Part shown: positions 27,992 to 34,678 of the stretch, piece after piece
Numbering within the stretch: position 1 is the first letter of the stretch
Layout: the number at the start of each line of letters is the position of its first letter
From: Mesorhizobium sp.
Lineage (GTDB): Bacteria > Pseudomonadota > Alphaproteobacteria > Rhizobiales > Rhizobiaceae
Assembly (NCBI GenBank): GCA_022833215.1
Contig: JAIPUZ010000080.1
Coordinates: 1 to 38,874 of the forward strand
DNA length: 38,874 nucleotides
Direction: 5' to 3'
Made by a program: the position numbers and the translations under genes
Notes under the pieces: model-generated
Told to the model about the DNA's origin: nothing
Database searches by the model: none
What the model saw: the letters and a program-made list of their open reading frames with translations, nothing else

Positions 27992-29125
27992 TTACCGGTC
28001 GAGAATCGAGCGAAGCTCCACGATGTTGGAGCGCACCTGCAAGAGGTTGAACCCCATGGTCGCCAGATGGGAGGGGAAGAAGGCGCTCGACTCGTTGCCG
28101 TTGGAGATGATCCACGGCTGCACGTTGAGCGAGGCGCGCAACTGGCCTTCCATGCGCGTCCACAGCGTGGTGAGATTGCGCTCGGCGATGATGGACGCGA
28201 AGTCGGAACGGGCCGCGACAAGAACGCCATAATACGCATAGAGCTGACCATAGGCGAACCAGAAGCGGTCGTCGGCGCGCAGATCGAACCAGCCGGCGTC
28301 CGACGCTTCTATGCGCTGGCGCAGGATGTCCGAGGTCGAGCCGATGTCGCCGGCGATACGGTCGAGGAACTGCATGAGGTTGTCGGCGCGCGCATCGAAG
28401 GTCGACTGGCATTTCTCGAGGCTGGTGTTGAAGGCGCGCAGCTTGGCGATCGCTTCCCGGTAGACGCTGGGGGTGGGACGGGTCGGGCCACGCCAGCCGA
28501 TGTACCAGGCGGTTTCGCTCCAGGCGAGGGCGGTGCGCGCATCCTGCAGGTTCTGGTCGATCTGCGAGGTGCCGCGCACGCGGCCGAGCGTGTCGACCAG
28601 TTCGGTGGTGGTGCGGCGCATCACCTGATTGATGCCGAGCTGGAAGGCGGCCTTGTTGTCAAAGAACGGCGTGTTCTTCCACTCGATGCCGAACAGGCCG
28701 ATCTTGGACAGCACCATGGAGGAAATCCATGCGTTCTGGTTGACGTTGAAGTCGATCAGATCGGCCGAGGTGGTGGCGATTGCAGAAAGCTTGCAGGTGG
28801 GGGCAGGCTCGCCACCGACCGTTGCCGAAATCGCGGCGGGGGTAACCGGATCGCCGGCACCGGTGGTGCCGCGGGCATCGACAAGCGCTGCCGGATAATC
28901 CGGATCGAAATTGGTCCAGAACTGTGTGACGTAGAAGAAATAGCCATACATGGCCACGATCACGGCCAGCACGGTCCCGACGATGGCGCGCAGCATGAAG
29001 CCGCGCTGGAGATACCAGCGTCCGACCCACATGAAGGGCCACAGGATGATGCCGATGACGAAGCCGATGCCTCGTCCGATCCAGTGGAAAATCCGGGTTA
29101 TGAAGTTCACGACCGGATCGAGCAT
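27992..29125 (-). CDS. DUF2333-family inner-membrane protein (last gene of five-gene operon)
   Basis: A 377-residue protein with two hydrophobic segments near the N-terminus (about 17-36, FVIGIILWPFMWVGRWYL region, and 45-65, LRAIVGTVLAVIVAMYGYFFY), then a long helical domain, probably periplasmic. Features such as FDPDYP, FFDNKAAFQLGINQVMRR, WYIGWRGPTRPTPSVY, FWFAYGQLYAYYGVL and FFPSHLATMGFNLLQVR match my memory of DUF2333, a family without known function. The ATG at 29125 has AGAAGG 9 bases upstream. It is the only operon member with evident membrane segments and so is likely the anchor of the system. Confidence 0.8.
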   Translation of the reverse strand: MLDPVVNFITRIFHWIGRGIGFVIGIILWPFMWVGRWYLQRGFMLRAIVGTVLAVIVAMYGYFFYVTQFWTNFDPDYPAALVDARGTTGAGDPVTPAAISATVGGEPAPTCKLSAIATTSADLIDFNVNQNAWISSMVLSKIGLFGIEWKNTPFFDNKAAFQLGINQVMRRTTTELVDTLGRVRGTSQIDQNLQDARTALAWSETAWYIGWRGPTRPTPSVYREAIAKLRAFNTSLEKCQSTFDARADNLMQFLDRIAGDIGSTSDILRQRIEASDAGWFDLRADDRFWFAYGQLYAYYGVLVAARSDFASIIAERNLTTLWTRMEGQLRASLNVQPWIISNGNESSAFFPSHLATMGFNLLQVRSNIVELRSILDR

Positions 29126-29145
29126 GCGTTGCATCCTTCTGCGGT

Positions 29146-30444
29146 TCAGTCGGTCAGACCGTAAAGGCGGGCACGAAACGCCGCCTTGTCCCTGAGATAT
29201 GCGGTTTTCAGCACGTCCACAACATGGGCGCGCCAGTTCTGGCTGAAGCCCTCGTAGTCGGCGTAGAAGCCCTGCTTGTTGAAGACGTAGCGCGAGACGA
29301 AGTCGGATGGCACGAAATCGGAGATCAGCCGGTTGGTGAGCCACGCATCCGGATGGTCCGGCCTTGCCCGCACCACGAGGAAGCGCTGCCCTGGCGACAC
29401 CTCGTCAATGCGCAACTGGCCAAGCTGGTTGATCTCGCGCTTGGCGGCATTCAGGAAAGGAAAGTTGCCGTCCTGATTGATCCGCTCGGCATTGTTGTGA
29501 ATCCAGGTCTGAAGCCAGACCTTGTCCACATTGGAGAGGTTCCGGTTGGGGTCGGACTCGCGGATCAGGCCCCGCACCACCATCTCGGCGCGGTGCTCCA
29601 GATAGCCGGAGGCTTCGACCCACGAGGCGCGAGGCAGTTCGAGGCGGCCGGTTTCGGCAAGGAAGCGGAACACGCGCTCCGCGTCGAAGATGGAGAGGTA
29701 GCTGACCTGCCATGGTCGCGAGCGGCGGAAGCCGGGCGCGGACGGATCGCAGATCACCGTGGTCGTGTCGGGGTCGATAAAGACGTAAAGGCCGCCGAAA
29801 TGGCTGGTCCAGTAGGCGTTGTGGCGGAAGATGACCTGGTCGGGCACCAGCGCGTTCTCGCGGATGTCGCCGCAGATGCGCGCCAGTTCCACCATGCGGT
29901 TCAGCATGTCGTCATCGCGCCAGGCGTCGGGCTCCTGCTTCAGGCGGTCGACCAGCGTGCCGAGTTCCGCCGCCTTGCCGAGCACGTCCTCGGCCGAAAG
30001 CACGCGGAACTCGACCTGACTGATGGACAGCAGGTCCTCGATGTCCTCCACGGTCGAGACCGAGTCGTCGATCTCGCCGTAGATCACGTCCTTGATGGTG
30101 AGCGCGTTGATGGCCCGCTGGTTGCGGCTCATGAACTCGAACATCAACTGAGACGTGTTTGAAAAAGCGGTGTGAACCACCGGCAGGTCGATCTGTGCCG
30201 GGGTCAGGATGATGAAGCGGCGGTTGATGCCGTTGGGGTCGAGGTAGGACAGGTCGCCCAGCTCTTCGGCGATCTGCGGCGAGAAGCCGGTGCGGTCGAT
30301 CTCGAAGACTTGCAGGTCGGTGGGCGGCAGGCCGAATGCCTTCAGCGCCTTGTTGTAGCGCTCGATCAGATGCGGTTCGTCCACCGTCAGCAGGCGTCCG
30401 TAGATGAGAGCGCTGTCGCGCAGCAACGGGAAGCGGGACGGCAT
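29146..30444 (-). CDS. DUF6638-like protein, function unknown (operon gene 4)
   Basis: A 432-residue soluble protein recognised only as resembling DUF6638: LIERYNKALKAFGLPPTDLQVFEIDRTGFSPQI, ELGDLSYLDPNGINRRFIILTPAQ, then FRHNAYWTSHFGGLYVFIDPDTTTVI. No catalytic motif or signal peptide is seen. An ATG at 30474 is also in frame, but the ATG at 30444 has AAGGG upstream and begins at the conserved part. The stop of the AAA+ gene is 33 bases before this start, and its own stop is 20 bases before the DUF2333 gene. Confidence 0.8.
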   Translation of the reverse strand: MPSRFPLLRDSALIYGRLLTVDEPHLIERYNKALKAFGLPPTDLQVFEIDRTGFSPQIAEELGDLSYLDPNGINRRFIILTPAQIDLPVVHTAFSNTSQLMFEFMSRNQRAINALTIKDVIYGEIDDSVSTVEDIEDLLSISQVEFRVLSAEDVLGKAAELGTLVDRLKQEPDAWRDDDMLNRMVELARICGDIRENALVPDQVIFRHNAYWTSHFGGLYVFIDPDTTTVICDPSAPGFRRSRPWQVSYLSIFDAERVFRFLAETGRLELPRASWVEASGYLEHRAEMVVRGLIRESDPNRNLSNVDKVWLQTWIHNNAERINQDGNFPFLNAAKREINQLGQLRIDEVSPGQRFLVVRARPDHPDAWLTNRLISDFVPSDFVSRYVFNKQGFYADYEGFSQNWRAHVVDVLKTAYLRDKAAFRARLYGLTD

Positions 30445-33558: not shown

Positions 33559-33589
33559 GTAAGGCCCTGTCCTATGCCTTTATCCCGCC

Positions 33590-34678
33590 CTATGCCTTCA
33601 CATAGTCCGCGGCGTTGTGCTTGCGCAGCACGTCGTCGAAGCGGCGGGCGAAGGCGTCGTCGGCCAGCTTCTTGCGGCGCTGGATGTCGGCGGTCGCCAC
33701 CATGTTCTTCTCGTGCAGTTCGAGCAGGTCGCCGATGTGCTTCTGCGCCGCCGCGCCGATGCCGGCCATGGTCTCCTCGGCCGTGGTGTCGACGCGAGAG
33801 CCCAGCGTGTTGATCTTGTGGGCGACATCCTGCTGGGCGGCCGTTTTCAGCGAATCCTCCAGCGCCTTGTAGAGTACGATGCGCTGCTCGGTATCGATGG
33901 TCAGCTTGTTGATCAGGGTCGCCTGCGCCGCGATCTGGTTGTTGAGAGAATCGACGAAGGTCTGGAACATGGAGGTGTAGCGCTCAAGCGTCTGGCTCTC
34001 GGCCAGCAGTTCCTGTTCCTTCGCCTGCCTTTCATTGTATTCGGTCGCCAGCTTCGAGCGTTCGCCTTCGAGTTCGGTGCGCTCGGTCTGGTTGGTGGAG
34101 GCGGCGATGCGGTTCTCGATGTCGAGCAGCAGCGGGTTCAGCTCCTCGATGCGCTTTTGCGTGGCGGTGAGGTTCTCGATGGTCGCCTTGCGGCGCTCGA
34201 TCACCGTGGAAAGGCTGGCTTCGGAGGTCTTGTAGCGCTGGTCGAGCACTTCTCTCTGCGCCTTCAGGATGCCGACGATGGTGTCGGACTTTGTCAGCAG
34301 CTCCTGAAGGTTGCCGGCGAGCGACATGTTGCGCACGCGCTCGGAGCGGAGGCGCTGCTGGCGCTGGCGCGAGAAGATGCCGATGAATTTTTCCCACGCC
34401 GAGTAGTTCTTCATGCTTTCGAACTCGGTGCCGAAGACGTTGGTGGCGTCCTCCAGCCCGATGATGAGATCGGCGATGTTGGCTTCCATCACCTTCTGCT
34501 GGTTGAGCACGTCCTGAATTCTGGCGTTCTCGATGTCGAAACTGGCATCGCCGATGGTCCTGTCGGCCTGGGCCAGCGTTTCGAGCACGGAACCGGACTG
34601 CTCGATGCGCGAGCGCATGTCCTCGACGGCCTGCTTCGTCTTCGCAATCTCGGCGTCGAAATTCTGCAGCGTCGCCAT
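33590..34678 (-). CDS. Long coiled-coil protein with TelA-like layout (operon gene 1)
   Basis: A 362-residue, nearly all-helical protein with no signal peptide. The regular spacing of Leu, Ile and Val in stretches such as LQELLTKSDTIVGILKAQREVLDQRYKTSEASLSTVIERRKATIENLTATQKRIEEL and LATEYNERQAKEQELLAESQTLERY (each only part of the region) indicates long coiled coils at about 110-240. The C-terminal helices (FVDSLNNQIAAQATLINKL, INTLGSRVDTTAEETMAGI) recall the TelA/KlaA toxic-anion-resistance family in layout, but similarity is weak and not relied on. It is the promoter-proximal gene, with a possible promoter about 50 bases upstream. Confidence 0.85.
   Translation of the reverse strand: MATLQNFDAEIAKTKQAVEDMRSRIEQSGSVLETLAQADRTIGDASFDIENARIQDVLNQQKVMEANIADLIIGLEDATNVFGTEFESMKNYSAWEKFIGIFSRQRQQRLRSERVRNMSLAGNLQELLTKSDTIVGILKAQREVLDQRYKTSEASLSTVIERRKATIENLTATQKRIEELNPLLLDIENRIAASTNQTERTELEGERSKLATEYNERQAKEQELLAESQTLERYTSMFQTFVDSLNNQIAAQATLINKLTIDTEQRIVLYKALEDSLKTAAQQDVAHKINTLGSRVDTTAEETMAGIGAAAQKHIGDLLELHEKNMVATADIQRRKKLADDAFARRFDDVLRKHNAADYVKA

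What the first reader, a model, noticed from the sequence alone, without database searches (positions are those of the whole stretch)
27992..34678. Five-gene operon of unknown function built around an AAA+ ATPase
Five minus-strand genes with gaps of 31, 21, 33 and 20 bases form one unit: coiled-coil protein, unknown protein, AAA+ ATPase with a unique 290-residue N-terminus, DUF6638-like protein and DUF2333 membrane protein. None has a known function, and the operon is bounded by terminators or its own start signals. The combination (ATPase motor, coiled coil, membrane anchor, two soluble partners) suggests a membrane-linked remodelling machine. I recall DUF2333 and DUF6638 as families without assigned roles; the machine idea is inference.
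Basis: partly seen in the sequence, partly recalled or inferred. Interest (0 to 1): 0.78.

Follow-up and report, generated by a model that had tools for sequence, protein, structure and literature searches.

The report
Four-gene AAA motor machine, uncharacterised
A set of genes that bacteria keep or lose together encodes an ATP-driven molecular motor and three unstudied partner proteins, and it probably remodels proteins at or near the cell membrane.

Summary
The five genes are real and form one unit between terminators. Comparison shows an obligate core of four: coiled coil, p381, AAA ATPase and DUF6638. Among 121 genomes of the family, ATPase and DUF6638 occur in the same 71 and are both undetected in the other 50. 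The coiled coil is in those 71 plus four others, one of them strong. p381 is in 70 of the 71 plus one. The same order occurs in three other families of the class, one genome of another class, and three opened Vibrio megaplasmid records. DUF2333 is looser: 23 further genomes have it, and 15 of the 15 fetched keep it within 3 kb of the choline-transporter gene. Outside the family a DUF1523-type membrane protein follows the core in 12 of 15 loci. The ATPase has an invariant pore-loop YQG and Walker-B Asp-Asp. Best reading: a threading AAA motor working with its coiled-coil partner near the membrane; the substrate is unknown. TelA kinship failed, and a PspA lead failed its control. No structure could be run. 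Six literature searches found no description.

The parts
33590..34678 (-). Core gene 1: 362-residue coiled-coil-like protein; conserved GIFS(R/K) near residues 100-104 and a conserved C-terminal half
   Evidence: ORF; alignments; no family above cut-off
32413..33558 (-). Core gene 2: p381, 381 residues, no known family
   Evidence: no hit; alignments; in 70 of the 71 genomes with the ATPase, plus G251
30478..32391 (-). Core gene 3: AAA ATPase, 637 residues; N-terminal region of about 290 residues without a family, then Walker A GDGAPGTGKT (305-314), pore loop YQG (348-350), Walker B TIDDID (D375, D376), N422, R432/R434/R438, FTGR (530-533)
29146..30444 (-). Core gene 4: DUF6638 (first possible start 30474)
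   Evidence: PF20343 248 bits; same 71 of 121 genomes as the ATPase
27992..29125 (-). Accessory gene 5: DUF2333 membrane protein (first in-frame ATG 29134; ORF opens with GTG at 29344); hydrophobic stretches at residues 19-37 and 51-69 counted from the 29134 start
   Evidence: PF10095 62.8 bits; hydropathy; occurs without the core
34679..34760 (-). Promoter-like block upstream of gene 1 (TTTCCA-17-TATATT in the window)
   Evidence: conserved in 12 aligned upstream regions
34814..34854 (-). Intrinsic terminator of the upstream rpsU gene, isolating the unit
   Evidence: read off
27964..27987 (-). Terminator-like hairpin after DUF2333

Best explanation
The four core genes make one ATP-driven remodelling machine. 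Shown: the four genes stay together, in one order, over large evolutionary distance, and the ATPase and DUF6638 are present or undetected together in all 121 genomes of one family; the ATPase has the parts of a classical AAA motor, including the aromatic pore loop that such motors use to pull a polypeptide through a ring. Inferred: it forms a ring (probably a hexamer) that pulls on a protein; its N-terminal region, p381 and DUF6638 choose or present the client; the coiled-coil protein is its scaffold or its main client; and membrane proteins that differ between lineages (DUF2333, DUF1523) bring the machine to the inner membrane. The invariant Asp-Asp in Walker B in place of the usual Asp-Glu (usual form recalled) suggests slow or regulated ATP use.
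For: Co-occurrence: ATPase in 71 of 121 and DUF6638 in 71 of 121, the same genomes; p381 in 70 of these 71, the miss being G152, whose ATPase gene is cut by a contig end, plus G251; coiled coil in all 71, plus G251 (strong) and three weaker. Order: 77 of 80 named loci; ATPase to DUF6638 same strand and within 2.5 kb in 65 of 71, and coiled coil to ATPase same strand within 2.2 kb in 66 of 71, the other 5 lying on another contig. In G172 and G223 the unit is broken by a strand change but all parts are kept. Same core and order in three other families of the class (f24, f106, f165), in G448 of another class, and in three Vibrio records at 40% ATPase identity. Motor: PF00004 44 bits; profile hits to an i-AAA protease ATPase domain (E 1.7e-4 and 3.6e-5) and, weakly, a proteasomal ATPase (E about 0.009), with YQG under YVG and IDDID under IDELD; YQG and D375-D376 invariant in 15 of 15 and 20 of 20 rows. 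Block loss: on a DUF2333 tree of 22 loci with and 15 without the core the label needs 10 changes, at least 5 forced by well-supported branches.
Against: No experiment, no structure, no complex prediction. The client is unknown, and physical contact between the four proteins is not shown. Membrane action rests on neighbours of differing families; in 3 of 15 loci outside the family no DUF1523-type protein was seen, and the three opened Vibrio records list neither DUF2333 nor DUF1523 next to the core. DUF2333 lives without the core. A conserved operon could also group proteins that act in sequence rather than as one complex. The co-occurrence counts are not corrected for relatedness. The tree's bootstrap had not settled, and its labels are hardly clustered (81 of 500 shuffles as low).
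Confidence: 0.55

Rival explanations
1. A chaperone or extraction motor for membrane proteins, like a proteolysis-free i-AAA, Msp1 or Bcs1 (names recalled): the coiled coil and the two soluble proteins are adaptors, not a polymer, and the client is a separate membrane protein.
For: The best structure-bank hit is an i-AAA protease ATPase domain; membrane proteins follow the core; no peptidase domain was found in the ATPase by Pfam.
Against: The ATPase itself has no hydrophobic stretch of membrane-spanning strength, unlike those motors; the coiled-coil protein is among the most conserved parts (75-89% identity over all but the most distant row), which fits a client or scaffold as well as an adaptor.
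Confidence: 0.2
2. An ESCRT-III/Vps4-like pair: the coiled-coil protein polymerises on membrane and the AAA motor takes the polymer apart.
For: Gene pairing of a helical protein with a threading classical AAA; profile comparison aligns coiled-coil residues 118-195 with PspA 8-78 in the same register in five alignments.
Against: The control fails: RmuC and TelA, coiled-coil proteins not held to be PspA, also beat all 60 shuffles against PspA, so the hit is not specific. With 108 sequences 4 of 40 shuffles beat it. Own genome has no PF04012 match. No structure.
Confidence: 0.1
3. An anti-phage defence or stress-abortive system.
For: Patchy presence, repeated block loss, presence on Vibrio megaplasmids, Fic and DUF559 genes inserted in some loci; PADLOC gives weak hits of the AAA domain to TRIP13 (25 bits) and IetA (18 bits) and of the coiled coil to AriA (15 bits).
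Against: Those hits cover only the AAA domain or coiled-coil stretches; p381 and DUF6638 have no PADLOC hit; within the family the site is fixed between fhs and the choline genes, unlike an island; no relative in IMG/VR scans or in INPHARED.
Confidence: 0.1
4. A TelA/Ter-type stress system with the coiled coil as a TelA protein.
For: Similar length and helical look; one comparison gave P 0.0043.
Against: No PF05816 hit among the families listed (both lists show the first 25 families only); other comparisons were at chance: 122 of 150 shuffles reach the real score with 108 sequences, 7 of 40, 2 of 60; no TelA in the own genome.
Confidence: 0.02

Closest known systems
Classical AAA motors (i-AAA proteases, proteasomal ATPases, TRIP13/Pch2, Vps4)
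   Same: Walker A, pore-loop aromatic-x-Gly, conserved Asn and Arg in the region after Walker B; PADLOC's best match is TRIP13 at 25 bits
   Different: Asp-Asp in Walker B, an unassigned N-terminal region of about 290 residues, and three obligate partners found in none of those systems (last point from general knowledge)
ESCRT-III/Vps4 and PspA-linked AAA operons (PMC11237479, passages read)
   Same: A helical protein gene beside a classical AAA gene
   Different: Coiled coil not shown to be PspA/ESCRT-III; p381 and DUF6638 have no counterpart in the passages I saw
DUF2333 (PF10095)
   Same: Gene 5 is a member by Pfam cut-off
   Different: No function known; the one paper found names a DUF2333 gene at a type VI secretion locus (PMC5256989, passages)
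DUF6638 (PF20343)
   Same: Gene 4 is a member
   Different: No paper found

Membership tests
AAA ATPase (PF00004) | Pfam gathering score | tested here: met
   44.1 bits against 21.2
AAA ATPase (PF00004) | Walker A GxxGxGKT | tested here: met
   GDGAPGTGKT, invariant apart from one residue (A308), 20 of 20 rows
AAA ATPase (PF00004) | Walker B ending Asp-Glu | tested here: not met
   Asp-Asp (D375, D376) in 15 of 15 and 20 of 20 rows; a conservative change that need not abolish membership of the superfamily
Threading classical AAA | Aromatic-x-Gly pore loop 1 | tested here: met
   YQG invariant, under YVG of an i-AAA protease
Threading classical AAA | Hexameric ring and substrate pulling | not testable with these tools
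   Needs biochemistry
PspA/ESCRT-III superfamily (coiled-coil gene) | PF04012 match | tested here: not met
   No match in the own genome; not in the families listed for the members (first 25 of 42 shown)
PspA/ESCRT-III superfamily (coiled-coil gene) | Specific profile similarity | tested here: inconclusive
   Beats most shuffles, but so do RmuC and TelA
PspA/ESCRT-III superfamily (coiled-coil gene) | ESCRT-III fold | not tested
   Structure machine busy on every accepted-form try (see Tried and rejected)
TelA (PF05816) | Sequence or profile similarity | tested here: not met
DUF2333 (PF10095) | Pfam gathering score | tested here: met
   62.8 bits against 22
DUF6638 (PF20343) | Pfam gathering score | tested here: met
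   248.3 bits against 27
Known anti-phage systems (PADLOC) | Full-length match of the components | tested here: not met
   Only partial hits of 6 to 25 bits for two of five proteins, none for the other three

The most novel reading that the evidence does not exclude
A bacterial filament-and-motor machine that works like ESCRT-III with Vps4 but is built from unrelated or very remote parts: the coiled-coil protein assembles at the inner membrane, the AAA motor (with p381 and DUF6638 as loaders) threads and takes apart the assembly, and exchangeable membrane proteins (DUF2333, DUF1523) set where it acts.
Probability: 0.12. Interest if true: 0.9.

Novelty: new variant of a known kind. Interest (0 to 1): 0.62.

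Why it matters
A four-gene set that is kept or lost together, spans Alphaproteobacteria, another proteobacterial class and Vibrio megaplasmids, and contains an AAA motor with three partners of unknown function is a whole machine without a name. It gives DUF6638 and an unnamed family (p381) a shared context, names the ATPase as the handle for genetics, and separates DUF2333 from it. Because close relatives with and without the core carry the same flanking genes, deletion and comparison experiments have natural controls.

Tried and rejected
TelA kinship of the coiled coil: Pfam member scans, profile comparisons. One comparison looked promising (P 0.0043; A7, P 0.0016), but it vanished with more sequences and 7 of 40 shuffles beat it. 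Rejected.

PspA/ESCRT-III kinship: the same register in five alignments, shuffles reaching the real score 0 of 40, 1 of 40 and 4 of 40, 0 of 100 and 1 of 100, 1 of 160; but RmuC and TelA as controls gave 0 of 60 each. Kept only as a lead.

Kinship of p381 with DUF6638 and of DUF2333 with DUF1523: none seen.

Class-wide single-sequence search: 9 of 142 genomes had a match at E 0.001, but 7 of these are 16-18 bit hits to the AAA region only; 2 are real. A profile at E 1e-10 found 5 of 289.

Literature: I guessed S. meliloti locus tags from memory; the one passage found could not be tied to these genes and is not used.

One search holds 37 of 38 loci asked for (L125 has DUF2333 elsewhere), picked by me.
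Full report
The window. It matches Aquamicrobium (97% ATPase identity to A. defluvii) and is contig C80 of a 4.5-Mb genome with one copy of the ATPase gene. The five ORFs and their gaps are as described, with two start-site choices. rpsU lies upstream and ends in a strong terminator; fhs lies downstream; choX lies at 35499-36443 (annotation of rpsU, fhs and choX by my reading, supported by the annotated S. meliloti Ak57 region for choX and fhs). A promoter-like block sits before gene 1 and is conserved in 12 aligned upstream regions.

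Families. Gene 3 is an AAA ATPase (44 bits), gene 4 DUF6638 (248 bits), gene 5 DUF2333 (63 bits); gene 2 has no family and gene 1 none above a cut-off. Profiles of genes 1, 2, 4 and 5 find nothing convincing among solved structures. Only gene 5 has hydrophobic stretches of membrane-spanning strength.

Order. In 77 of the 80 named loci all five genes are in order on one strand; the other three are cut by contig ends. Gaps vary: in some loci a DUF559 endonuclease-type gene (122.7 bits, L041), a Fic gene (69.9 bits, L044) or a 144-residue hydrophobic protein without a family (L049) lies between core genes.

Co-occurrence. In 121 genomes drawn from the family: ATPase 71, DUF6638 71, the same genomes. 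Coiled coil 75: the 71, G251 (E 9.6e-182; a 68%-complete genome), G170 (2.0e-46), G188 (2.7e-8) and G157 (9.6e-4). p381 71: 70 of the 71 and G251; the miss, G152, has its ATPase gene at a contig end. DUF2333 94: the 71 and 23 others. ATPase and DUF6638 are on one strand within 2.5 kb in 65 of 71, 3.1 kb apart in one, on opposite strands in two (G172, G223) and on different contigs in three.

DUF2333 without the core. I fetched 15 of the 23 such loci. In 15 of 15 choX is within 3 kb of DUF2333, and in 5 of 15 fhs is also within the fetched stretch, so the site is the window's own; p381, ATPase and DUF6638 are absent from these stretches. In 3 of 15 a diverged relative of the coiled-coil gene lies next to DUF2333. 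On a DUF2333 tree of 22 loci with and 15 without the core, the label changes 10 times at the fewest and at least 5 times on well-supported branches, which I read as repeated loss of the block from one place; gains cannot be excluded, and the bootstrap had not settled.

Wider spread. With an ATPase profile, 26 of 398 genomes of the phylum match: 11 of the own family, 13 of family f24, one of another family of the order (G645) and one of another class (G448). Of these 15 from outside the own family I opened all but one (G759), plus G331 of family f106. In the 15 loci so opened the coiled coil, p381, ATPase and DUF6638 are present in order. A membrane protein of the DUF1523 type follows in 12 of 15: 4 by Pfam, 7 more by alignment with those and L196 by eye; I saw none in L193, L200 and L201. 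Four Vibrio megaplasmid records match at about 40% identity; I opened three, and each holds the four core genes in order followed by mfd (coiled coil 37% and p381 29% identical to the window's). R. leguminosarum pRlX5 has the core without DUF2333 next to it. No relative was found in two IMG/VR scans or, with the Vibrio ATPase, in the phage collection.

The motor. Alignments of 15 and 20 ATPases keep Walker A, YQG (348-350), D375-D376, N422, R432, R434, R438 and F530-x-G532-R533. HMMER aligns YQG with YVG and IDDID with IDELD of an i-AAA protease. So it is a classical-type AAA with a threading pore loop and an atypical Walker B. The reading of the later residues as sensor and arginine-finger positions is from general knowledge.

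What it does. I commit to a threading AAA machine with the coiled-coil protein as scaffold or client, and p381 and DUF6638 as loaders, acting at or near the membrane through exchangeable membrane proteins. The unit and the motor are shown by sequence; ring formation, threading, partner roles and place of action are inferred.

What did not hold. TelA kinship of the coiled coil. PspA/ESCRT-III kinship gave the same register each time, but unrelated RmuC and TelA did as well against PspA, so the test does not discriminate. The own genome has no PspA match. Defence: only weak partial PADLOC hits.

Literature. Full-text searches for DUF2333 (1 paper, passages seen), DUF6638 (none), DUF1523 (4, listing only), guessed S. 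meliloti tags (1, passage seen, not used), ESCRT/PspA/AAA terms (24, listing; passages of two seen) and a neighbourhood query (none) found no description of this system. The library holds open-licence papers only.

Noticed in passing
L041:11942-12430, L074:11899-12543, L058:11899-12378, L163:12100-12504: A DUF559 endonuclease-type gene is inserted between the ATPase and DUF6638 genes in several rhizobia (Pfam-tested in L041 only; annotated as endonuclease in L163).
   Followed up: partly
L044:9207-9998, L058:9209-9982: A Fic-family gene lies between p381 and the ATPase gene in some Mesorhizobium (Pfam-tested in L044).
   Followed up: partly
L049:9554-9988, L074:9543-9980: A small hydrophobic protein overlaps the p381 stop codon; no Pfam family for L049.
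   Followed up: partly
L196:10103-10816, L200:8063-8788, L201:10229-10954: A similar-looking 237-241 residue protein of unknown kind lies between the ATPase and DUF6638 genes in three loci of family f24.
   Followed up: no
L163:12682-13845: In S. meliloti Ak57 an ISRm16 transposase gene sits inside the unit, between the endonuclease and DUF6638 genes.
   Followed up: no
L134:8156-9097, L135:8210-9079, L139:5871-6932: A diverged relative of the coiled-coil gene survives next to DUF2333 in genomes without the ATPase.
   Followed up: partly
L160:13283-16744: On the Vibrio megaplasmids an mfd gene follows the core directly.
   Followed up: no
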